This document shows positions 22,691-62,100 of a stretch of DNA of 64,000 bases, piece by piece. The notes below the pieces were generated by a model that was given only the letters and a program-made list of their open reading frames with translations, made no database searches and had not been told where the DNA came from. Positions within the stretch are counted from its first letter, which is position 1; the number at the start of each line of letters is the position of its first letter. A program made the position numbers and the translations under genes. Origin of the DNA: Methanobacteriota archaeon (GTDB lineage: Archaea > Thermoplasmatota > Thermoplasmata > RBG-16-68-12 > JAJISG01); NCBI GenBank assembly GCA_030594205.1, contig JAUVFR010000001.1, positions 1 to 64,000 of the forward strand, written 5' to 3'.

Positions 22691-23833
22691 GTGAAGGATA
22701 CGAGAGACCGCCCCACGATCGAGCGCTCCGCCGCCGAAGTCGCGGCGTTTCGGGCTCATCACCATCACCTTCACGAACGGGCACCAAAGGGTCAGCTCTC
22801 CGCAGTAGCCCGAGATGTGGGGGGGATCCAAGCCCAGGTGGATTCCGCCGCGAAGACATCCCTGTGGACCCGGGTCCAGGATTTGACGCCCCAGGACGTG
22901 GAGACCGCCCTCTGGGAAAAGCGAACACTGGTCAAACTCTGGATCATGCGTGGGACGGTTCACCTCCTACCGGTGCACGAGCTGAGTGTCTACCTCGCAG
23001 GCCTGCGCAGGGAGGGACTCTTTCGGGAACAGCAGTGGATGCGGCGTTATGGCCTCCGGGAGGAGGACTTCCACCTGATGCCTCGTGCCGCGGAAGAGGC
23101 CCTGGCTTCGGGCCCCCTGACTCGCCGTGAATTGGGCGAGGCGGTCGTGGAGCGGGTGGGCGAGCGGGCGAGGAAGTGGGTGGAACATGGGTACGGCGGC
23201 GTGATCCGCTTGGCCACCATCGAGGGAAAGATTTGCTTTGGCCCCAACCAGGGGCAGGAAATCACCTTCGTCCTGCTCGACGACTGGGTGGGTCGCCGGG
23301 CGACGATGCGCCCGGAGCAAGCAGAGACGGAACTGCTAAGGCGGTACCTTCATGCCTACGGCCCCGCCACCCCACAGGACTTCGCTGCTTGGTCGGGGAT
23401 GCGCATGGGGATCGTCCGAGAGATTTGGGATCGGGCGGGGGATGACCTCCAGACCGTCGTTGTCGACGAGAAAGAGTCGCAGATGCTCGCCACGGAGGTT
23501 GACGACCTGCGGGCCGAACTGGACGCCCGGACCTCGGTCCGCCTTCTCCCGTATTTCGACACCTTCCTCTTGGGGCACAATGACAAGGGACACCTCGTGG
23601 ACGAGGCGCATTACAAGCGGGTCTACCGAAAGGCAGGATGGATCTCTCAGGTGGTCCTCGTCAACGGGCAAATCGCCGGAGTCTGGACCCAGAAGGCACG
23701 GGGAAAGCGGTTGACGGTCACGGCGGAGCCGTTCGAGGTATTCGATCAGGTGGTGCGCCAGGCAGTGAAAGAGGAGGCCGCCGATCTGGGACGTTTCCTG
23801 GGTCGAGAGGCCGAGGTCGTCTTCGCTTCGTGA
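22691..23833 (+). CDS. Winged-helix DNA-binding protein, AlkZ/YcaQ-like (HTH_42) family
   Basis: VAAFRAHHHHLHERAP...VARDVGGIQAQVDSAAKTSLWTRVQDLT..LWEKRTLVKLWIMRGTVHLLPVHEL, LLPYFDTFLLGHNDKGHLVD. Confidence 0.85.
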   Translation: MKDTRDRPTIERSAAEVAAFRAHHHHLHERAPKGQLSAVARDVGGIQAQVDSAAKTSLWTRVQDLTPQDVETALWEKRTLVKLWIMRGTVHLLPVHELSVYLAGLRREGLFREQQWMRRYGLREEDFHLMPRAAEEALASGPLTRRELGEAVVERVGERARKWVEHGYGGVIRLATIEGKICFGPNQGQEITFVLLDDWVGRRATMRPEQAETELLRRYLHAYGPATPQDFAAWSGMRMGIVREIWDRAGDDLQTVVVDEKESQMLATEVDDLRAELDARTSVRLLPYFDTFLLGHNDKGHLVDEAHYKRVYRKAGWISQVVLVNGQIAGVWTQKARGKRLTVTAEPFEVFDQVVRQAVKEEAADLGRFLGREAEVVFAS

Positions 23834-23836
23834 GGC

Positions 23837-24085
23837 CTATTCCGGCGCTCCTCGTGCTTGCAGTTCCTGAATCTCCCGTTGCTGTTCGATGAGGATCGAG
23901 AGGAGGGTCGTCTCGAGGGGGTCCAGGTCGGCACAGAAGCTGGCCGCCGAAGCGTGCTGACGCGCCTTCAGGGCCACCGCGTCGAAGAGCACGCGGTCCT
24001 TCTGCCGCAAGGCACGCCGGTAGTTCGACCAAGAGCCTAGGATCCCCTCCAGGTGCAATCGATACGTGGGAACGGTCCGACCCAT
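23837..24085 (-). CDS. Small conserved archaeal MGRT(V/N)PTYR-type protein
   Basis: MGRTVPTYRLHLEGILGSWSNYRRALRQKDRVLFDAVALKARQHASAASF. Confidence 0.7.
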   Translation of the reverse strand: MGRTVPTYRLHLEGILGSWSNYRRALRQKDRVLFDAVALKARQHASAASFCADLDPLETTLLSILIEQQREIQELQARGAPE

Positions 24086-24149: not shown

Positions 24150-24932
24150 TCAGGAGAAAGCGGGGAGCTCCACCTGCCGCGTCCGACTTGTCGTGTCGCG
24201 AAGGGAGCCACGCAGGGCCTTGGGCACGACCAGGGTGCCCAGATCCATCTCCCCGTAGTCCTCGAGCACCGCCTGATCGGGCCGGACGGGGAGGAAGCGG
24301 AGGCTCCGACCCTCCTCGGGTAGGGAGAGGAGGAGACCCCCCTTGACGTAGCGAATCTGGACGGTCCGGTCCGCCATCTGGTGGAGAAGGTTTCCGATTC
24401 CCCGCCGTCGGAAGAGTTGCGACAGGCCTTGATTGGTCATCAGACCGATGAGCTCCTCCTCCTGCACCAGCTCCCGTACCTTCCGCAAGCCTCGGCGGAG
24501 CAGGTGATACACCTCCTCGTACTCCACCTCCTCGTCCAGGAAGAGATCGGGAAGGCGGGAGAGGACCAGGAGGCCCGGGCCCGCCCGCACCTCCTCCTCC
24601 AGGGACTCCAGAAGGAGGGAGGTCATCTGGTAGACCGTGAAGGCCCGGGCGACCCGGATACGACCCAGCACCTCTTGGCGGGTGCTCCCAAACCGCTTGG
24701 CGAGGGAGGCGAGGGCGTAGGGGTTGATGGAATTCCCCCCGTCCACAAAAACCGCCTCTCGGTCGAAGTCCAGCACGTGGCGGACCGTCATCGCGAAGAC
24801 GAGGTCGTGAACGAAAGGGCTGGCGCTGTTGATGAAAGTAAGACGACCCGGGGCGATGCCTCCAAGGAATCCGTCGAGGATCCGGTTCCCCGTGTAGAGC
24901 CGGGGAGGGCTGGCCCTCAGCTCCATCTCCAT
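24150..24932 (-). CDS. RecA-fold protein related to RadA/RadB with degenerate Walker A
   Basis: RILDGFLGGIAPGRLTFINSASPFVHD in place of a P-loop; LASLAKRFGSTRQEVLGRIRVARAFTVYQM matches RadA/B pattern; GLMTNQG. Confidence 0.75.
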   Translation of the reverse strand: MEMELRASPPRLYTGNRILDGFLGGIAPGRLTFINSASPFVHDLVFAMTVRHVLDFDREAVFVDGGNSINPYALASLAKRFGSTRQEVLGRIRVARAFTVYQMTSLLLESLEEEVRAGPGLLVLSRLPDLFLDEEVEYEEVYHLLRRGLRKVRELVQEEELIGLMTNQGLSQLFRRRGIGNLLHQMADRTVQIRYVKGGLLLSLPEEGRSLRFLPVRPDQAVLEDYGEMDLGTLVVPKALRGSLRDTTSRTRQVELPAFS

Positions 24933-25680: not shown

Positions 25681-27213
25681 TCAGGGTTCGAGCACCTCAT
25701 CGGTCCGGCTCGCGAGGCGATCCAGGTTCGCGTCGGTCGCGGTCCTACCCAAGAGATGGTCGCGCACGTTCAGGTCGTCGTAGCGCATGACGTCGATGAC
25801 CGTGGGGATGCGAATGGCGTCCCCCAGCACGGTCACCACCCGGGCCGGAATCGTGGAGATAATGCTCTCCCACATGGAACGGTCGGGGACGCCCGCCAAG
25901 GACGAGGTCACGTCGCTGGGCTCCTTGAGAGACATCACAAGCCGGTTGGCCAGCTGGCTCCGCACCTCGTCGTCGATCTTCGAGGGGCGCTGGTCGACCA
26001 GAGCGAGAATGAGGTTGAACTTCCGAGTCTCCCGGGCCAGTTTGCTGAATATGGTGTAGTTGGCGATGGCCGGATCCAGGAACTTGTGGGCCTCCTCCAA
26101 GAACACGATGAGGCGCGGGAACTCCTCGTTCTTGTCCGTATACAGGTCAAAGAACCGGCGCGCCAGGACGTTGGCCACGAACAAGTAGACCATCTCGTCG
26201 GTGCCGAAATCCCCGAAGTCCAATACGAGGGACTTGCCGTGCCGCACGAGGGAAACCATCGTGGAGAAGGCGTCCTTCGCGGTGGGACGGAGGAAAGGAA
26301 GGCGCTCGAGGCGGCGCACCCGCCGCTTCAGCGCGTTGAGGACCGTGGGGTGGATACGGCTCTCGTCGAACTTCTCGGGTTCCGCCTCCTCGATCGCGGC
26401 CAGGAGGTTGGTCGGCCGTCGCTTGGCGATTTCGTAAATCGCGTCGATCATGTTCTGATTCAGGTCCTGCAGGGCGACGATGAGGTCCTGGGGGCGAATC
26501 TCCTCGGCGTTGATGAGGAAAGGTCGAGCCTCCTTGTTTTTCGGGTCCAGGGATAGGATCTCCACCCGCTCCGGGAAGTAGAATTTCAACCCCTCCGTCT
26601 TGTCGGTCCGAGAGTAGATCCCATATTCCCCGTGCATGTCGAAGACGAGGACAGAACCGACGTTTCCTCCAAGGATCCCTAGGCAGACGAGCTTGTTGAG
26701 GATGGACTTGCCCATCCCCGTCCGGCCGAAGATGGCAAAGGGCTTTTCGCTGAGCCGCTCGAAGTCCAGGTGGACGTAGAACTGGGTGACGCCTCGGATC
26801 GTGCCCAGGGGGGCCGACCGAGGGGTCTTCTCATAGATGAGCTCCACGTCCGGCTCCCGGGCATGGCGGACCTCCGAGAAGTAGGGAGGGATGGTCTGCG
26901 GTTCCGACAGACGTCCCGTCTCTTTCTCGATGAGCTGGATCGGCTTGAGGACGGCCTTGGCGTAGAAGATGGGACCCCCATACCCCTCTTCGATCCCGGT
27001 GGGCATCACGGTATCCCGGAGACGGGATCCCGCCAGGCGCTCGGCGATGCGAGACGGCTCGTTGACCACGTCTTCCACGAGACAGTAGAAGTCGTAGCGG
27101 CGACCCTCGACGATGACGGGGTAACCAATCCGAAGGTCCTCCGGGTTCTCCAGGTCCAGCTTGGCCTCCAGCCCGCGGAGCGCGGAGGCGGAGACGACCT
27201 CTCCGATCTTCAC
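25681..27213 (-). CDS. herA: HerA-like DNA-end-processing helicase
   Basis: FAIFGRTGMGKSILNKLVCLGIL, VLVFDMHGEYGIY, RLIVFLEEAHKFLD; GTG start overlaps nurA stop. Confidence 0.92.
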   Translation of the reverse strand: MKIGEVVSASALRGLEAKLDLENPEDLRIGYPVIVEGRRYDFYCLVEDVVNEPSRIAERLAGSRLRDTVMPTGIEEGYGGPIFYAKAVLKPIQLIEKETGRLSEPQTIPPYFSEVRHAREPDVELIYEKTPRSAPLGTIRGVTQFYVHLDFERLSEKPFAIFGRTGMGKSILNKLVCLGILGGNVGSVLVFDMHGEYGIYSRTDKTEGLKFYFPERVEILSLDPKNKEARPFLINAEEIRPQDLIVALQDLNQNMIDAIYEIAKRRPTNLLAAIEEAEPEKFDESRIHPTVLNALKRRVRRLERLPFLRPTAKDAFSTMVSLVRHGKSLVLDFGDFGTDEMVYLFVANVLARRFFDLYTDKNEEFPRLIVFLEEAHKFLDPAIANYTIFSKLARETRKFNLILALVDQRPSKIDDEVRSQLANRLVMSLKEPSDVTSSLAGVPDRSMWESIISTIPARVVTVLGDAIRIPTVIDVMRYDDLNVRDHLLGRTATDANLDRLASRTDEVLEP

Positions 27214-28193
27214 TTCAACTCCCTTGTGACGCGGTCCAGGTATTCGTGAAAGGTCCCGTGGCGCGCCCCCTCCATGGTAGTGAGCCCGCCGATGAGCAGG
27301 GATACGGGCAACCCGAGACGGACGCCCTCCTTGACGATGGCGTCCTCGTACATTTCCCGCATCTGGCGGATGGTGACGGCGAACCGGTGGGCCTCGAAGA
27401 GGGGGCGAGGGTAACCCACACACAACGGGGAAGCGCAGTAGGCCGCGAGCTCGGCGAGGGCTCGGTCGGGGGCCTCCTTGTCGGTCCCGATGTCGACGCG
27501 GAACCACTTGGGCGCCTTGGGGTGCAACCGGGCGAAGTAGATGTCCCCATGCAGGAGCCCACGCTGTCGCCCCTCGAATTCCTCCGGCACGCGAATGAAC
27601 CCCATTCCGTCGCGGCGACGGAGTAACTCCTCATCGGTGAGCGGGGAACCAAACGCGTGGGTGGTCGAGTCCTTTGAGACCCCGACCAGCAAGTGGCCAC
27701 GCTCCTCGCATGCCCGCACCACGTCTCCCAACCGATCCGTCTCCCTTGGGAAGGAGGCCAGGCTGCCATCCAGGGCCAAGATCAAGTCTTCGTTGGCCCG
27801 AGCCGCCTGCAACGCAATCTGATGTTCGTAGTACTTCCGAAGCTCATTCACGATCTCCCGGTGCTGCTCCTTCGCCCCCCGTGTGAGACGGAAGATGGTG
27901 GCCTGGAGGTCGTCCTCGGCCACAAACCCCTCCCGTGTCGAGATCACGACGGGTTTCTCGAGCTTCTCGATGCCCTGGACCCTGCCACCGCGATAGAGGA
28001 GGGCCCCCACCTTGATCACAGCCAGCCAGAGAGAGGAGCTGTTCCAGAGAAAGCTGTAGGACCCGTCCACCGCCACGAGGTCCCGCTGGTTTTCGGCGGC
28101 CTGGAAGGGCACAACCTCGGTCGGAGGCTCGGAGTCCACGCGCTGGCTGTACTCCAAGACCCGGCTTAGTCCCTCGCGCAGATCCTCGAGCAC
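27210..28193 (-). CDS. nurA: NurA nuclease
   Basis: DLVAVDGSYSFLWNSSSLWLAVIKVGAL, LILALDGSLASFP, RVDIGTDK...; position between rad50 and herA. Confidence 0.88.
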   Translation of the reverse strand: MLEDLREGLSRVLEYSQRVDSEPPTEVVPFQAAENQRDLVAVDGSYSFLWNSSSLWLAVIKVGALLYRGGRVQGIEKLEKPVVISTREGFVAEDDLQATIFRLTRGAKEQHREIVNELRKYYEHQIALQAARANEDLILALDGSLASFPRETDRLGDVVRACEERGHLLVGVSKDSTTHAFGSPLTDEELLRRRDGMGFIRVPEEFEGRQRGLLHGDIYFARLHPKAPKWFRVDIGTDKEAPDRALAELAAYCASPLCVGYPRPLFEAHRFAVTIRQMREMYEDAIVKEGVRLGLPVSLLIGGLTTMEGARHGTFHEYLDRVTRELK

Positions 28194-28195
28194 AT

Positions 28196-30625
28196 TCAGG
28201 CGACCACCTCGGCCCGAGACTCGCCCTCGGGGGTCATCGTGACCCGAACCCGGCCGGGGAACCGTTCGGCCACCTCCGCGAGGTGGGTGATGAGGATGAC
28301 CTTCTCGAAGAAGGCCCCCATCTTGAACAGCTTGGCGACGAAGAGCTCTCGGGACCTCTCGGTATCCAGAGACCCCAGGTCTCCTTCGTCGATGAAGAGG
28401 GTCTTCATCCGCCCGTACGTCCGCCCGACCTGCGGCATGCTGGCCAGCTCCTTGGCAATGGCGAAGCGCAGGGCCGCGTTGATCTGTGTCCGTTCGCCGC
28501 CGCTGAAGACCCCCACGTCGTGCCATTCTCCGTCCACCCCCTCCACGAGGATGCGGATGCCATAGCCGCCTGACTCCTCGTGGGTCTCCAGTCGGACCCT
28601 GCGCAGACGGCCGTCTGTCAGGTCGTCCAGGTTCCGGGTCGTTTCGATTTGAAGTTCCGGCAGGAGGCGGTTGACGGCGTACATGACCACCCCCTTTCGG
28701 TGGAATACGCCGTCTTTCAGGACCGTGTAGACCTCGGCGCGGGCGCGCAGCTCCTCGAGACCTTCCTCAAGCGTCTTTAGCCTGGCCTCCAACTCCTCGA
28801 GCTCCTTGACGCGCTCCAGGGCCGCCTTCAGTTCCCCCTCCGACTGGAGGAGGGTCTTCGTCGCCTCCTCCTTCTCTCCTCGAAGGATCTCCAGTTGATG
28901 GTGCAATTCCTGAAAGCGGACTTCCGCCTTCTCCAACCCCTCGAGGGTCTGCGCATCCTCACGGAGTCCCTCTTCCAGGGCGAGGCGTTGCTCCTCCATC
29001 TCCCGGAGCTGTCCGGCGAGCCCCCCCAGCTCCTGCAGTTCGGCTTGGGCTCGGCGAAGGGTCTCTTCGGCCTCAGGCAATTGTGCCACCCTCCCCTGGA
29101 GGGTCTTGAGTCGTTCGGCCTCCGAGGGGTCGAATCCCACCGCCTCCCTCTGTCCCTGAAGTTCCTTGACCCGGGCCGTCAGCTCTCTCCGCCGCCTCCC
29201 CGATTCCGTCCGTTTCGCCTTCAGCTCCTCCCGGATGGTCCGGATCGTCTGCTGAATCTCGCTGAAGAGGAAGGTGTCCCGAGTGATGCCCTCGGTCTTC
29301 CGCCGCACCGTCTGGAGCGCCCGACGACTCTCCTCTTGTTCCCTCCCCAGGCGCTCCAGGAGAGCCCTCTGCTCCGCGAGCCACTTCATCTCCTGGTCGA
29401 TGCGATGCACCCGCTCCTCCAGGGATCCCTCCTTCCGGAGAAGCCCGAAGGCCTCCTCCACCCCCATGGCAGTGGAGAGCGTGGTGAGCCTCGCCTCGGC
29501 ATCGGCGACCTTGCGACGGAGCTCGTCCTCGACCTTGGTCGCCTCCCCTTCCGCATCCCGGAGACGGGCCTCGGCGGCTTGAATCTCCGTGGAGAGGATG
29601 GTGAAACTGTGGTGCTTCTCGAGGAGCGCCTTGACATCGGTCTCCTCCATCCGCAACGCCTCGATCTCCCTCTCGAGGGTCCCCATCTGTTCCTGGAGAC
29701 CCGGAAGGCTGCCTTGCCCGGACCGCTTTTCTTCCAATCGTCGCTCCAGCTCGGCTAGGGTCGCCTGATGCTCCTCCCGCCTCGCCCGCGTCTGGAGATA
29801 GGCCTCGTGCTCCGCCTCGCTTCGCACGAACTCCTCCTTCAGCGAGGTCAGTCGTTCCTCTACGTCCTGGAGGGCCTTGCGTTGCGTGGCGACCAGCTCC
29901 TCGAAAGACGTGGCTTCCCCACGCCGGTCGGGCAGCCTCACGACTTGGTCGCGCAGGGTCCGGGACTCCCCCGCGGTCCCCTCAATGCGAGCAAGCACCC
30001 CGTCGAGGCGCTCCTTGGCGGCCCCGGCCGCCCTCTCGAAGGTTTCCAACCGAAAGAGCTTCTGAAAGACCTCCAATCGCTTCGAAGGACTCGCCGCCCC
30101 CAGCTCCTTCATTTCCTCTTGACGCACGAAGGTGGAGTTCCGGAAGCCGTCGTAGTCCAGGCCGACGATGTCCTCGATGAGGGTCTCCAGCTGGGGGATG
30201 GTGCCGCGGAGGTGTTTGCCGTCCCGCTGCACGGTCAGATAGGACGCACCGGAAGCGTCAAGGCCCCGTCCTACCTCGAATCGGGCGCCCCCTTGGCGGA
30301 AGGCCACGCGCGCGTATCCGCTAGGCTGGACGATTTCTGAGATCCTGACGGTACGCAGGTCGGTCCGTGTGCTCCGCTTGTAGAGGGCGAAGGTGATCGC
30401 ATCGAGGATGGACGTCTTGCCTGCTCCCGTCGGGCCCGTGATGGCGGTGAAGGTCTCCGGGAAGGTGATGGGGGGCCTCGTCCTGCGGAGGTAGCGCATG
30501 AATCCTTTCATCTCGACCTCCTCGATCACCAGCCCCTCGTCAGGTGCCACGGGCCTCGACTCGACGGCGAGGTTCTCCTGCGTTTCCTGCGCGGTGCCCT
30601 CCACGAAGGACTCCAGGGTCTTCAT
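28196..30625 (-). CDS. rad50: Rad50/SbcC-like SMC ATPase lacking cysteines
   Basis: ITGPTGAGKTSILDAITFALY, FSGGERTQINAALRFAIAKEL, MKTLFIDEGDLGSLD; no Cys in 809 aa. Confidence 0.92.
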   Translation of the reverse strand: MKTLESFVEGTAQETQENLAVESRPVAPDEGLVIEEVEMKGFMRYLRRTRPPITFPETFTAITGPTGAGKTSILDAITFALYKRSTRTDLRTVRISEIVQPSGYARVAFRQGGARFEVGRGLDASGASYLTVQRDGKHLRGTIPQLETLIEDIVGLDYDGFRNSTFVRQEEMKELGAASPSKRLEVFQKLFRLETFERAAGAAKERLDGVLARIEGTAGESRTLRDQVVRLPDRRGEATSFEELVATQRKALQDVEERLTSLKEEFVRSEAEHEAYLQTRARREEHQATLAELERRLEEKRSGQGSLPGLQEQMGTLEREIEALRMEETDVKALLEKHHSFTILSTEIQAAEARLRDAEGEATKVEDELRRKVADAEARLTTLSTAMGVEEAFGLLRKEGSLEERVHRIDQEMKWLAEQRALLERLGREQEESRRALQTVRRKTEGITRDTFLFSEIQQTIRTIREELKAKRTESGRRRRELTARVKELQGQREAVGFDPSEAERLKTLQGRVAQLPEAEETLRRAQAELQELGGLAGQLREMEEQRLALEEGLREDAQTLEGLEKAEVRFQELHHQLEILRGEKEEATKTLLQSEGELKAALERVKELEELEARLKTLEEGLEELRARAEVYTVLKDGVFHRKGVVMYAVNRLLPELQIETTRNLDDLTDGRLRRVRLETHEESGGYGIRILVEGVDGEWHDVGVFSGGERTQINAALRFAIAKELASMPQVGRTYGRMKTLFIDEGDLGSLDTERSRELFVAKLFKMGAFFEKVILITHLAEVAERFPGRVRVTMTPEGESRAEVVA

Positions 30626-31806
30626 CCTAGGACCTCCCGGAGAATCTCCTCCCCGTCCCGCAGGATGTCCTCCATCCGGGCGTGGTCCGCGTAGTTCAGC
30701 TCCACGTACTCTCGAAAGAGGCGGAGGGGGTCCAGGGTGAACTCGGGCGCGGAGACCTTCTCCCGCTCCCGGTACCGATACGCCACGTCATAGTGGAAGG
30801 CCCCGGAGAGGCGGCGCGCCACGGCGGTCTCGTCGATCCGTTGCCTCTGGCCCTCGTCCAGGCGGACCTGGAGCCGCAACAGGGCCCCTTCGAGGTCCTC
30901 CGGGAGGGCCTTGAGGATCGATTCGGTGGCGTCCTCCCCTCCGAGGTCGATTTCCACCTTGATCATGGGTCGTGTGGGAAGGGGGTGAAACGTCCAGCTC
31001 TCGGTCGGGCGGTACGTGAGGAAGCCTTTGTCATCCCCCTCCTCTCCCCAATCCACTCGCTCGGGGGCACCCACGTACACGATGCGATCGCCTACCGTCT
31101 GGTGGAGGTGAATGTGTCCAAAGATCCCGAGCTCGACGGCCTCCGGGATCCCGTCGAGGCGCAGGGAAAACTCGCCGGGTAGCACCTCGGGAGAGGCCGT
31201 GGAACGCACCAGGGCCCCCTCCACATAGTAGTGGCCGAATAGCACGACATGGTCGCTCTGAGCCTCCTCTGCCCGCCTCCGCATCCACTCCTGGAGCATC
31301 CGACGTCCGAGCTCGAAAGTCTGTTCCGGGGGCACCTCCTCCCCGAGTCGTTCACGGACACGGTCGAGAATCTGCTCAGGATGCAGGTACGGGAGAAGGA
31401 GGGCGGTGACGGTCTCCCCCTCGACGGTCACATCTCGGACGGCCGGTTCCCGGAAGACCTCGACGTGGGGGTAGCCACGGAAATCCTCTAGGGAAGTCCC
31501 GCGCGCCCACATGCGGGGCTGGTCGTGGTTACCCGCGATGAGCCACGTCGTGATGTGGGCCTCGCCGAGGGGTTCGATGACATCCCGGCGCACCTGCTCT
31601 CGGAAGGTGGGGCTCACGTGGGTCCGGTCGAAGAGATCCCCGGTTACCACGAAGACGTCGGCGTCCTTCGCGATGGCGTACTGAGCGGCCCGAACGAAGT
31701 TCGCGTGGAGATCGAGCGACCGGGCCGAGACGCCCGTCTCGGGGTCCAAGCGATAGGGAAAGTTCACACCTTCGTGAACGTCGGAGACCGCGACGAGACC
31801 TCCCAT
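30622..31806 (-). CDS. mre11: Mre11 nuclease
   Basis: AVSDVHEG, VTGDLFDRTHVSP, LIAGNHDQPRM, FGHYYVEGA, GIFGHIHLHQ; ATGA overlap with rad50. Confidence 0.93.
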   Translation of the reverse strand: MGGLVAVSDVHEGVNFPYRLDPETGVSARSLDLHANFVRAAQYAIAKDADVFVVTGDLFDRTHVSPTFREQVRRDVIEPLGEAHITTWLIAGNHDQPRMWARGTSLEDFRGYPHVEVFREPAVRDVTVEGETVTALLLPYLHPEQILDRVRERLGEEVPPEQTFELGRRMLQEWMRRRAEEAQSDHVVLFGHYYVEGALVRSTASPEVLPGEFSLRLDGIPEAVELGIFGHIHLHQTVGDRIVYVGAPERVDWGEEGDDKGFLTYRPTESWTFHPLPTRPMIKVEIDLGGEDATESILKALPEDLEGALLRLQVRLDEGQRQRIDETAVARRLSGAFHYDVAYRYREREKVSAPEFTLDPLRLFREYVELNYADHARMEDILRDGEEILREVLG

Positions 31807-56824: not shown

Positions 56825-59005
56825 ATGGAAGGCTGGATCATTGACGCCTATGCGGACTACCAGCGGGACTCCCTCGTCACCTGGCTCTGGACGCCCGGGG
56901 GCGTTCGCCGCATCGAGGATCCCGCGTACCGGCCCCGCTTCTACATCCACGGGGGGCGGGGCGACCTCGAGATCATGAAGCGCCGGTTGGGGCGGCTCGA
57001 CCGGGTGGAGGAGGTGGAGTGGGCCTCCAAGAAGATCGACATCCGGTCCACCGAACCGGTACCCGTCCTGGACGTCCTCCCCCGCCACTACCGGGACCTC
57101 CACCCTCTGGCGGAGCTGGTGAACCGGGAGGGGCAGTTCCACGACTTCCGCCTCTACGACGTGGACCTGCGGCACAACCAGCGGTACTTCCTCCAACACG
57201 ACATCTTCCCCCTGAGCCGGACGGCGTACAACGGGACCTGGAAACGACTGGAGGAGCCCTTCGCCCTGGAGTACGAGCTCCCGCCCCTGAACACGCAGGC
57301 ATTGGACGTCCAGGTGGATGCGCCCGAGGGGCTCCCCCGTTACGAGGACCGTCTCCGCACGGCCCGACTCGGGGAAACGGTGCTGGAGGGCTCCGAGGAG
57401 GCGATCCTGGAGGATCTCAACCAAACTCTGCGGGAGGAGGACCCGGACATCCTCCTGACCGTGAACGGCGACCCCTTCGTCCTCCCCTACCTGCTTCAGA
57501 AAGCGGAGTCACATGGTGTAGATCTCGTGCTGGGGCGAGAACGACAGCGATTCCGGCACGGGGAGGGGAAGAGCTACTTCACCTACGGCAAGATCGTCTA
57601 CAAGCCGACCCAGTACCTCCTCCGGGGCCGCCTCCACCTGGATGCAAATCACTTCGCCCACCGGGAGAGCGGTCTCCACGGGCTCGCGGAGATGTCCCGG
57701 CTGGCCCGCCTGGTCCCCCAGGAGATGCTCCGGCTCACCCCCGGGACGGCCATCACGGCCATGCAGGTGAACGAGGCCCACTGGCAGGGCTACGTCGTCC
57801 TCTGGAAGAAGAACCTGCCTGAGGTCTTCAAGACGGCGGAGTCCCTCGTCCTCTGCGACCGGGGCGGCTTCATCCTGGAGCCACAGGTCGGCATCCACGA
57901 GGGGATCGTGGAGGTGGACTACGCCTCCCTCTACCCCCAGATCATGCGTACGTACAACATCTCGCCGGAGACCATCTTCTGTCCCTGCTGCAAGGAAGAT
58001 GGCATGGTGGCGCCGGCGATCGGGCACCACACGTGCGTACGTCGGAGAGGGCTCATCCCGGTCTATCTGGACCCGGTCTTGGAGAGGAAGAAATACTACA
58101 AACAGAAAAAGAAGGAAGCAGGACCGAACCAGGCGGTCTACGAGGCCCGGGACTGCATCCTGAAGTGGATGCTCGTAACTTCATTTGGATACATGGGATA
58201 TTCGAACGCCCGCTACGGCCGTATCGAGTGCCATGAGGCCATCAACGCCTACGCCCGGGAACTCCTCGTCCGGAGCGTGCACATTGCCGAGGCCCACGGC
58301 TACGAGGTCATCCATGGCATCGTCGACTCCCTCTGGCTTCGCCCCTTGCCCGGCCACGCCTCCGTGGAGGAGGTCGTGCAGCGCATCCAGGACGACATCG
58401 GCCTCCCCCTCGACCTGGAGGGCGTCTACCGCTGGGTCATCTTTTTACCCTGTAAGACCACGGGCGTGGGGGCCCTGAATCGCTACTACGGCCTCCTCGA
58501 GGACGGGGAGATGAAGCTGCGCGGCATCGAAGTGCGGCGGCACGACACGCCGCCCTTCGTTGTCCAGGCCCAGACGGGCATGCTGGAGGTCTTTCGCCAG
58601 GCCCAGAACGCCCGGGAGTTTCAGGACGCGATCCCCGCGGCCCTTCAAGTCCTCCGGGAGGCCGCCGGGAACCTCCGAAAGGGTCGCGTCCCGCTGGAAG
58701 ACCTGGTTATCTCCAAGGTCGTCACGAAACCGCTGGAGGATTACGTGGTCCTGAACTACACCGCCGCGGCGTTACGGCAGCTGAAGGCCCGCGGCTTCAA
58801 GACGGAGCCGGGGGAGTACATCCGCTACGTCATCACGGACCGGAGGACCCGGGACTACCGGCGGAAGGTGAAGTTCGCCGCCTTCCTCCAAGAGGGGGAC
58901 ACGCCGGATGAATGGGAATATCTCCGACTCCTGGCAAGGTCGGGGGAGACCCTCCTGGCTCCCTTCGGCTACACGGAGGAGGGGCTCCTCCCGGAGCTAA
59001 GCTAG
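56825..59005 (+). CDS. Family B DNA polymerase with atypical catalytic motifs
   Basis: Motif A EVDYASLYPQIM; motif B region LKWMLVTSFGYMGYSNARYG; motif C position IHGIVDSLWL; ExoII position LTVNGDPFVLPYL. Confidence 0.88.
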   Translation: MEGWIIDAYADYQRDSLVTWLWTPGGVRRIEDPAYRPRFYIHGGRGDLEIMKRRLGRLDRVEEVEWASKKIDIRSTEPVPVLDVLPRHYRDLHPLAELVNREGQFHDFRLYDVDLRHNQRYFLQHDIFPLSRTAYNGTWKRLEEPFALEYELPPLNTQALDVQVDAPEGLPRYEDRLRTARLGETVLEGSEEAILEDLNQTLREEDPDILLTVNGDPFVLPYLLQKAESHGVDLVLGRERQRFRHGEGKSYFTYGKIVYKPTQYLLRGRLHLDANHFAHRESGLHGLAEMSRLARLVPQEMLRLTPGTAITAMQVNEAHWQGYVVLWKKNLPEVFKTAESLVLCDRGGFILEPQVGIHEGIVEVDYASLYPQIMRTYNISPETIFCPCCKEDGMVAPAIGHHTCVRRRGLIPVYLDPVLERKKYYKQKKKEAGPNQAVYEARDCILKWMLVTSFGYMGYSNARYGRIECHEAINAYARELLVRSVHIAEAHGYEVIHGIVDSLWLRPLPGHASVEEVVQRIQDDIGLPLDLEGVYRWVIFLPCKTTGVGALNRYYGLLEDGEMKLRGIEVRRHDTPPFVVQAQTGMLEVFRQAQNAREFQDAIPAALQVLREAAGNLRKGRVPLEDLVISKVVTKPLEDYVVLNYTAAALRQLKARGFKTEPGEYIRYVITDRRTRDYRRKVKFAAFLQEGDTPDEWEYLRLLARSGETLLAPFGYTEEGLLPELS

Positions 59006-59646: not shown

Positions 59647-60114
59647 CTAAGCCTTCAGGCCCGGGGCCACCTCGACGGTGCACTCCGTCTCGTTCAGGGT
59701 TGCCAGTAGATTCTCGAGGGCGCCTTCCTCCACAGGGACCAGCCAGGCCCGGGCGACGGCGTCGAAGGTCCGACCGGGAACCTTCTTGATTGCCTGGACG
59801 AGACTGCGATTGTACTCGAATCGAATGAGATACTGGTCTCCGCTCTGTTCCACGGTTATCTGGGGACGGGCCTCGGGCGGAACGACGGCACGTTCGTGCA
59901 TGTCCGCCAACTCCTCGTCCATCTCCACTTCCGCGCCCTCCGCCTCTAGGGTCGCCAAGGCGTCGGCGTAGTAGTGGATAGGAATTGTCCACTCCTTCGT
60001 CATGGGGTCGTAGCGCCTCCGATCGAGGGTCTTCACCGCGCGCACGAGGAGTAGATCGTAGTCGAAACTCAGGACCGCCTCATCCCCCCGCCGACGCATG
60101 GTTACACGCGTCAT
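59647..60114 (-). CDS. Stand-alone tandem HARP-like domain protein
   Basis: LSFDYDLLLVRAVKTLDRRRYDPMTKEWTIPIHYYADALATLEAEG and YLIRFEYNRSLVQAIKKVPGRTFDAVARAWLVPVEEGALENLLATL. Confidence 0.65.
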   Translation of the reverse strand: MTRVTMRRRGDEAVLSFDYDLLLVRAVKTLDRRRYDPMTKEWTIPIHYYADALATLEAEGAEVEMDEELADMHERAVVPPEARPQITVEQSGDQYLIRFEYNRSLVQAIKKVPGRTFDAVARAWLVPVEEGALENLLATLNETECTVEVAPGLKA

Positions 60115-60133
60115 TGTGTGGGGAACAATCAGG

Positions 60134-60143
60134 CCTATAAAGG
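60134..60143 (-). promoter_or_regulatory. TATA box, leaderless promoter
   Basis: CCTTTATAGG about 20-29 bp upstream of ATG 60114. Confidence 0.6.
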
Positions 60144-60176
60144 GCCGAAGTGGGGGTGGGTGAAAGTGCTTCGCCC

Positions 60177-60698
60177 TCACGGCCGCTCGGACTGCAGGTC
60201 TCGGGATCGCAGGACGGCCTCGAGGCCGATTCCCATCTCCCGAAGGCTCTCCGCTCCCCCCTCCTCTCGATCCACGACGCAGACCGCACGCTCGACCTGC
60301 GCCCCCTCGCCCCGCAGGACTTCGGCGGCCCGTTGAATCGTTCCTCCGGAGGTGGCCACGTCCTCCACGAGGAGCACCTTCTCCCCAGCCCGGATTTCCC
60401 CCTCGTAGGCTCGCCCCGTCCCATGGCCGCGGGCCTTCTTGCGAAGAATGACGTAAGGAAGCCCCGTTTCCAGGGCCAGGGCCACGAGGAGAGGGACGGC
60501 GCCCAGCTCCGTCCCCGCCAGGCGCTGGACCCCCGCCGTGTAGGGGACCAAACGCTGCACCACCCGACGGAGGAGGACGGGGTCCGTGAAGGCGGCCTTC
60601 AGGTCCACGTAGAAGGAGCTCTTCTTCCCGGAGGTCAGGGTGAAGTCTCCGAACTTCAGCGCTCCCTTCTCGACGAGGGCCTCCACTAGGTTCACCAT
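60177..60698 (-). CDS. pyrE: Orotate phosphoribosyltransferase
   Basis: GDFTLTSGKKSSFYVDLKAAF, VLLVEDVATSGGTIQRAAEVLRGEGA. Confidence 0.94.
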   Translation of the reverse strand: MVNLVEALVEKGALKFGDFTLTSGKKSSFYVDLKAAFTDPVLLRRVVQRLVPYTAGVQRLAGTELGAVPLLVALALETGLPYVILRKKARGHGTGRAYEGEIRAGEKVLLVEDVATSGGTIQRAAEVLRGEGAQVERAVCVVDREEGGAESLREMGIGLEAVLRSRDLQSERP

Positions 60699-61353: not shown

Positions 61354-62100
61354 ATGGTGGAGCGCGTTCCCACCTTCGTGGAGGGGTTCGACCGGGCCCT
61401 GGGCGGGGGTATCCCCGAGGGAAGCGTCGTCCTCGTCTGCGGGACCCCCGGGACCATGAAGACGTCCCTCGTCTTCAGCGTCCTCTACCACAATGTCCAA
61501 GAGAAGGGCCGGAAGGCGCTCTTCGTGACCTTCGAACAGGGGTACGAGGATCTCAAGGCCAGCATGGAGGAGCTGGGGATGGGCGACCTCGACGGCATGG
61601 AACTCTACATCCTCGATCTCGGACGGATCCGGCGAGAGCATCGGGAGCAGGACAACCAGAAGGATTGGCTGGAGGCGCTGCAGGAGTACATCACCAAGCG
61701 GGTCCACGACCACGACTTCGACCTGCTGGCCATCGACGCCCTCTCCGGGCTTTACTCCCTGAGCGAGATGGAGAACCCGCGGCGCGACCTCTTTCACTTT
61801 TTCGCCTTCCTCCGGGACTTAGGGCCCACCTGTTTTCTCATCTCCGAGATCCCCTTCCACTCCCGCCGCCTCGTGGCGTATGAGGAGGACTTCCTCTCGG
61901 ACGGCGTCTTCCTCCTGCAACACGCCGAGGTGGGGGACAGCGATGTTCAGCTCCGCATCCGGTGCGTGAAGCTCCGCCGGGCGAAGCACGCCCAGAACTA
62001 CTTCGCGTTGGTGTGGGGCCCGAAGCGGTTCATGGTTACCTCCATCATCGCACGGACGGGGGACCGACGGCGCCGGCGGGCCGAACCCGCCTCATGGTGA
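61354..62100 (+). CDS. KaiC/RadA-like (RAD55 family) ATPase
   Basis: VPTFVEGFDRALGGGIPEGSVVLVCGTPGTMKTSLVFSVLYHNVQEKGRKALFVTFEQ. Confidence 0.9.
   Translation: MVERVPTFVEGFDRALGGGIPEGSVVLVCGTPGTMKTSLVFSVLYHNVQEKGRKALFVTFEQGYEDLKASMEELGMGDLDGMELYILDLGRIRREHREQDNQKDWLEALQEYITKRVHDHDFDLLAIDALSGLYSLSEMENPRRDLFHFFAFLRDLGPTCFLISEIPFHSRRLVAYEEDFLSDGVFLLQHAEVGDSDVQLRIRCVKLRRAKHAQNYFALVWGPKRFMVTSIIARTGDRRRRRAEPASW

What the first reader, a model, noticed from the sequence alone, without database searches (positions are those of the whole stretch)
56825..59005. Family B polymerase with altered motif C (GIVDS for YGDTDS) and disrupted exonuclease motifs
Seen directly: motif A is intact (DYASLYPQIM). 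The motif C position reads IHGIVDSLWL, replacing the first Asp of the canonical DTD pair with Ile. The motif B region has TSFGYMGY instead of NSxYGYxGY. The ExoII position reads VNGDPFVLPYL where active enzymes have an Asp after Phe (NGDxFD), and the likely ExoI position LDVQVD lacks the DIE acidic pair. Families of archaeal PolB with inactivated active sites are known from the literature. This copy is a mixed case: motif A and the distal Asp are retained. It may be structural, regulatory or a low-activity polymerase.
Basis: partly seen in the sequence, partly recalled or inferred. Interest (0 to 1): 0.72.

Follow-up and report, generated by a model that had tools for sequence, protein, structure and literature searches.

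The report
Archaeal PolB2 lesion-bypass DNA polymerase
This gene encodes an ordinary member of a known archaeal polymerase family (PolB2), once thought dead but since shown in Sulfolobus to be an active DNA-damage-tolerance enzyme; the unusual point is that its two usual partner genes sit 33 kb away, beside a double-strand-break repair cluster, instead of next to it.

Summary
In detail: ORF 56825-59005 (+, 726 aa) is a family B polymerase with motif A intact, motif C HGIVDS, and degraded exonuclease motifs. It is not a one-off mixed case. It is PolB2 (group B2; Sulfolobus Dpo2). HGI(V/I)DS, the motif A Asp and a D(K/R) motif are invariant in 20 homologues down to 35% identity, and HGIVDS is also present in haloarchaeal PolB2s. 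A tree puts it in a 100/100-supported PolB2 clade. The replaced first Asp of DTD is not the metal ligand; Sulfolobus PolB2s with HxxxD are active, proofreading-deficient extender polymerases. The most likely role is therefore translesion/mismatch extension, not a dead subunit.

Both PolB2-mutasome partners lie in the same window, 32.7 kb away on the other strand: iRadA (24150-24932) and PPB2 (23840-24085, MGRT N-terminus). In related families all three genes form one block after Mre11-Rad50-NurA-HerA. In this family the block is broken between PPB2 and PolB2, and iRadA-PPB2 stay with the break-repair cluster.

The genome also encodes PolD, a canonical PolB and a Y-family polymerase. Side finding: relatives carry inteins at motif B, and three share a +1 frameshift there. 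Verdict: new member of a known kind.

The parts
56825..59005 (+). polB2: family B DNA polymerase, PolB2 (B2) group, 726 aa
   Evidence: AlphaFold model pLDDT 87.6, best PDB matches archaeal PolB3 in replicative state, TM up to 0.74
57302..57319 (+). ExoI position LDVQVD (canonical DIE reads DVQ): degenerate
   Evidence: not conserved among relatives
57464..57481 (+). ExoII position NGDPFV, catalytic Asp replaced by Val219
57857..57862 (+). D345-R346, the D(K/R) motif specific to PolB2
   Evidence: D345 invariant in 20 sequences, also DRGG in haloarchaeal PolB2; in a low-confidence loop of the model
57917..57937 (+). motif A DYASLYP with metal-binding D365
58163..58201 (+). motif B K447-...VTSFGYMGY; relatives carry inteins between T452 and S453 (window 58180/58181); none here
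   Evidence: local GC3 minimum at 454-456
58313..58330 (+). motif C HGIVDS (HxxxD): H497 and metal-binding D501 kept, first Asp is I499
24150..24932 (-). iRadA: inactive RadA/Rad51 paralogue, partner of PolB2; no Walker A P-loop
   Evidence: Rad51 family 26.8 bits; model matches Rad51/RadA core; orthologous to the gene upstream of polB2 in relatives
24255..24275 (-). clamp (PCNA)-binding-like motif QAVLEDY near the C-terminus of iRadA
   Evidence: QxxL(D/E)(D)(F/Y)-like, Q220 invariant in 14 iRadAs; sequence match only
23837..24085 (-). PPB2 (arCOG07300 type): 82 aa, N-terminus MGRT, partner of PolB2
   Evidence: orthologous to the gene immediately upstream of polB2 in relatives and in haloarchaea; single copy in genome
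25681..31806 (-). Mre11 (30622-31806), Rad50 (28196-30625), NurA (27210-28193), HerA (25681-27348): break-repair cluster next to iRadA-PPB2
   Evidence: ORFs and HerA family match; synteny with relatives. Mre11, Rad50 and NurA named from sequence and order, not from a family search

Best explanation
The gene encodes PolB2, an active, proofreading-deficient B-family polymerase that extends mismatched or lesion-containing primer ends. D365 and D501 hold the catalytic metals; the missing first Asp of DTD is tolerated, as in Sulfolobus Dpo2. It most likely works with iRadA (an ATPase-dead RadA paralogue carrying a clamp-binding-like tail) and a PPB2 trimer as the known PolB2 mutasome. Here those two partners are encoded 33 kb away, after a rearrangement that cut the ancestral iRadA-PPB2-PolB2 block. 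The adjacency of that block to Mre11-Rad50-NurA-HerA in this order suggests use during break or fork repair. Shown: sequence, clade, partner genes, synteny. Inferred: activity, complex formation, pathway.
For: Motif C HGI(V/I)DS, D365, K447 and D345 invariant over 20 homologues. PolB2 clade 100/100 including haloarchaeal PolB2s that have HGIVDS and an MGRT-type PPB2 next door. Purifying selection: third codon positions hold 321 of 579 differences to the nearest relative. NCBIfam best models are the PRK05761.1-2/-4 type B polymerases, while the genome's canonical PolB scores best to Pol II models. Whole polymerase fold predicted well and closest to replicative archaeal PolB structures. iRadA and PPB2 found and confirmed by orthology and, for iRadA, structure. 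Ancestral order Mre11-Rad50-NurA-HerA-iRadA-PPB2-PolB2 in families f2, f3, f5, f6. Biochemistry of homologues from PMC8764526; complex from PMC11791011.
Against: No activity data for this protein; none seen for any Thermoplasmatota PolB2 in the papers read. The query falls below the NCBIfam cut-offs (454.8 of 516 bits). No co-transcription is possible between polB2 and its partners here. The link to break repair rests on gene order only and is absent in some relatives (f4 G004, f2 G017).
Confidence: 0.85

Rival explanations
1. Catalytically dead PolB kept as a structural or regulatory subunit of the replicase (the 2008 proposal).
For: Loss of the first Asp of DTD, of ExoI/ExoII acids and of the canonical motif B Asn; original proposal in PMC2527604.
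Against: Both metal ligands, the motif B Lys and motif A are invariant; homologues with the same HxxxD motif are robust polymerases (PMC8764526); PolB2 is needed for targeted mutagenesis in S. islandicus (PMC11791011).
Confidence: 0.07
2. Active polymerase that, after separation from its partner genes, works alone or in a different complex, for example as a general repair polymerase.
For: polB2 is 32.7 kb from iRadA-PPB2 and on the other strand here, and the two parts are likewise apart (on different contigs) in the sister genus G001.
Against: All three genes are conserved in both f1 genomes (PolB2 75%, iRadA 68%, PPB2 72% identity), the partners are single-copy here, and the D(K/R) motif that contacts PPB2 in published models is retained.
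Confidence: 0.12
3. Decaying pseudogene.
For: Degenerate exonuclease motifs; three relatives have a frameshift in the same gene.
Against: Full-length ORF and purifying selection; full-length or near-full-length PolB2 matches in most genomes of the order.
Confidence: 0.01

Closest known systems
Archaeal PolB2 / Dpo2 (B2 group; Sulfolobus islandicus and S. solfataricus Dpo2)
   Same: HxxxD motif C, D(K/R) motif, lost ExoI and mutated ExoII, partners iRadA and PPB2 (family features from PMC8764526, PMC11791011)
   Different: Window protein keeps most of the exonuclease domain's length, whereas Sulfolobus Dpo2 is the smallest known PolB2; partner genes are not adjacent
Haloarchaeal PolB2 (e.g. Haloarcula marismortui pNG600 WP_011222486.1)
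   Same: HGIVDS, DRGG, same clade; upstream PPB2 with MGRT
   Different: 33% identity; partner-like genes directly upstream and orc1/cdc6 nearby
Archaeal PolB3 (Pyrococcus abyssi, KOD)
   Same: Overall fold, TM up to 0.74
   Different: PolB3 has YxDTD, NSxYG and an active exonuclease
Bacterial G2 PolB2 operons
   Same: Same three-gene system per PMC11791011
   Different: Bacterial, iRadA-PPB2-PolB2 order fixed, lexA nearby (from the paper; not examined here)

Membership tests
PolB2 (B2 group) | Motif C HxxxD instead of YxDTD | tested here: met
   HGIVDS
PolB2 (B2 group) | Conserved D(K/R) motif before the palm | tested here: met
   D345-R346, D345 invariant
PolB2 (B2 group) | ExoI not conserved, ExoIII missing | tested here: met
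   ExoI DVQ and variable, ExoII Asp replaced; ExoIII not separately located
PolB2 (B2 group) | Monophyly with known PolB2 | tested here: met
   100/100 clade with haloarchaeal PolB2; the tool warns of long branches between groups; no Sulfolobus sequence could be included
PolB2 (B2 group) | iRadA and PPB2 partners encoded nearby | tested here: inconclusive
   Both present in single copy but 33 kb away on the other strand; adjacent in relatives
PolB2 (B2 group) | Polymerase active, exonuclease-free, mismatch extender | not testable with these tools
   Needs biochemistry; known only for Sulfolobus homologues (PMC8764526)
Canonical PolB3/PolB1 replicase | YxDTD, NSxYG and DIE motifs | tested here: not met
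iRadA | RadA/Rad51 core, no N-terminal helical domain, no ATPase site | tested here: met
PPB2 (arCOG07300) | Small helical protein with MGRT N-terminus next to polB2/iRadA | tested here: met
   helicity itself not predicted here

The most novel reading that the evidence does not exclude
In this Thermoplasmatota order PolB2 expression may be gated at motif B itself: inteins sit at T452|S453 in many relatives, and three genomes share a +1 frameshift (UUU C GGN) one codon later with no other decay. That could be a programmed +1 frameshift, which would be new for archaea, or repeated homing-endonuclease repair scars. In addition the PolB2 mutasome may act directly with Mre11-Rad50-HerA-NurA in break repair.
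Probability: 0.12. Interest if true: 0.65.

Novelty: new member of a known kind. Interest (0 to 1): 0.27.

Why it matters
It adds a Thermoplasmatota case to the re-reading of 'inactivated' PolB2 as a translesion polymerase. It gives a natural experiment in which the mutasome genes have been pulled apart yet all kept, and it ties the system by gene order to break-end resection, a link not seen in the PolB2 papers read here.

Tried and rejected
KaiC-like ATPase at 61354-62100 considered as iRadA and rejected: intact P-loop and KaiC family match. A Pfam call failed on wrong coordinates, as did an alignment; both were repeated. The single genome-contig scan gave only two named Thermoplasmata MAGs. 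Phylum-wide pattern search for the intein-free +1 frameshift in 390 genomes found nothing, so it is confined to one genus in the genomes sampled. The order-level pattern hits G001, G010, G022, G027 and G029 are in-frame codons ending in T followed by TTC GG, not frameshifts. Promoter/terminator scan uninformative for an archaeon. Multimer modelling of PolB2-iRadA-PPB2 was not available.

Full report
OBSERVATION. It matches the Pfam DNA_pol_B and DNA_pol_B_exo1 families and, by sequence, solved archaeal PolB chains such as P. abyssi PolB at 2.7e-53. Column by column, D365 falls on the motif A Asp. Y-I-D-T-D-G of P. abyssi falls on H497-G-I499-V-D501-S, so the first Asp is Ile and the second is kept. 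ExoI DIE of the genome's own canonical PolB reads DVQ here, and the ExoII catalytic Asp reads Val219.

IDENTITY. A search of 61 relatives found matches to the query in 58 (some of these only to the canonical paralogue), with 75% identity to the nearest (same family) and 35-57% to the other families aligned. In a 20-sequence alignment D365, K447, H497, G498, I499, D501, S502 and D345 of the D(K/R) motif are invariant. Haloarchaeal plasmid-borne proteins annotated 'type B DNA-directed DNA polymerase' (33% identity) have the same HGIVDS and DRGG and an upstream small protein starting MGRT/LGRT/VGRT. An IQ-TREE tree puts all of these in one PolB2 group with 100/100 support, apart from ten canonical PolBs of the same class and P. 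abyssi PolB3 (the tool cautions about long branches). The window protein is therefore PolB2, and its motif C is the fixed state of that family, not an individual oddity.

FUNCTION. PolB2 was named inactivated in 2008 from the same motif losses (PMC2527604). Later work found S. islandicus and S. solfataricus Dpo2 comparable to the replicase Dpo1 in primer extension, without exonuclease, and efficient at extending mismatches and lesion-paired ends. It also noted that the second Asp of motif C is the metal ligand while the first points away (PMC8764526). [quoted passage not shown] islandicus (PMC11791011). The predicted structure of the window protein is a complete B-family polymerase (pLDDT 87.6) closest to replicative-state archaeal PolB3 (TM 0.73-0.74). 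The most likely mechanism is two-metal catalysis through D365 and D501 with a relaxed, non-proofreading active site. This is inferred from homologues.

PARTNERS. PMC11791011 describes a PolB2 complex with PPB2 (small, helical, MGRT N-terminus) and iRadA (RadA without ATPase site). The immediate neighbours of polB2 here are a glycogen-debranching-type enzyme upstream and CYTH, HARP-domain, PyrE and other genes downstream, none of them a partner. A scan of the window for MGRT ORFs found PPB2 at 23840-24085 (-), with iRadA directly upstream at 24150-24932 (-). In relatives their orthologues lie just before polB2. iRadA matches Rad51 weakly, lacks a P-loop, models as a RadA/Rad51 core without the N-terminal domain, and keeps a QxxL(D/E)(D)(F/Y)-like tail resembling a clamp-binding motif. 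Each partner is single-copy in the genome.

ARCHITECTURE. In families f2, f3, f5 and f6 of the order the gene order is Mre11, Rad50, NurA, HerA, a membrane protein, iRadA, PPB2, PolB2, then often a HARP-domain gene, PyrE/CarS-like genes, KaiC and XPD-like helicase. In the window both flanks are preserved but separated. Mre11-Rad50-NurA-HerA-iRadA-PPB2 lie on the minus strand at 31.8-23.8 kb. PolB2 with its downstream neighbours lies at 56.8-64 kb. The sister genus G001 shows the same two separate neighbourhoods, on two contigs. A rearrangement, probably an inversion, thus cut the block between PPB2 and PolB2 in this family. All three genes persist, which argues that they still work together in trans. 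The break-repair neighbourhood is a contextual hint only. It was not mentioned in the PolB2 papers read (Mre11 does not occur in PMC11791011).

OTHER POLYMERASES. The same genome has a canonical PolB with YGDTDS, PolD large subunit and small-subunit family match, and a Y-family polymerase. PolB2 is therefore neither the only candidate replicase nor the only possible translesion enzyme.

SIDE FINDING. In several relatives polB2 is interrupted at T452|S453 inside motif B by in-frame inserts of 165-528 aa with intein-like ends. Splicing-domain matches pass the curated cut-off in three of four tested, and two of these also match LAGLIDADG domains. Three genomes (G005, G026 without intein, G025 with one) have +1 frameshifts at TTT C GGN one codon later. 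They are diverged from each other (78-82% DNA identity in the C part), each closest to in-frame relatives, and show the same codon-position pattern as intact genes. Candidate causes are programmed +1 frameshifting or endonuclease-repair scars. The published review knows only one proven frameshift in archaea, a -1 case (PMC8211752). The window copy has neither intein nor frameshift, but its GC3 falls from 0.88 to 0.36 at exactly this site, consistent with past conversion or intein loss.

VERDICT. Real and correctly read motifs; known family; new member with a split mutasome locus.

Noticed in passing
Relatives L047-L051, L053-L058 (genomes G009, G010, G020, G023, G025, G029, G032, G007, G051, G038, G019): Inteins in polB2 at motif B, between the residues matching window T452 and S453; mini-inteins of about 165-200 aa and larger ones of 467 and 528 aa with LAGLIDADG domains. 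By alignment the site is one residue downstream of the N|S site I recall for PolB3 inteins (from memory, not tested).
   Followed up: partly
L046:5077, L051:5744, L052:3674 (genomes G005, G025, G026): Shared +1 frameshift TTT C GGN TAY in motif B of polB2, no upstream start for the second half, no other decay; UUU-to-UUC slippage before CGG is chemically plausible.
   Followed up: partly
window 58163-58201: Local drop in GC3 (0.36 against 0.88 for the gene) at the intein insertion site, also the gene minimum in five related genomes of families f1, f4, f5.
   Followed up: partly
window 22691-23833: AlkZ-like DNA glycosylase (226 bits) convergent with PPB2.
   Followed up: no
window 59647-60180: Small protein with two HARP (HepA-related) domain matches close to polB2, with a similar gene in the neighbourhood in families f1, f2 and f3.
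   Followed up: no
L104 (G049:C1:874500-880000): A second, divergent 612-aa PolB with YVDTDG in a relative, on a very long branch next to P. abyssi PolB3.
   Followed up: no
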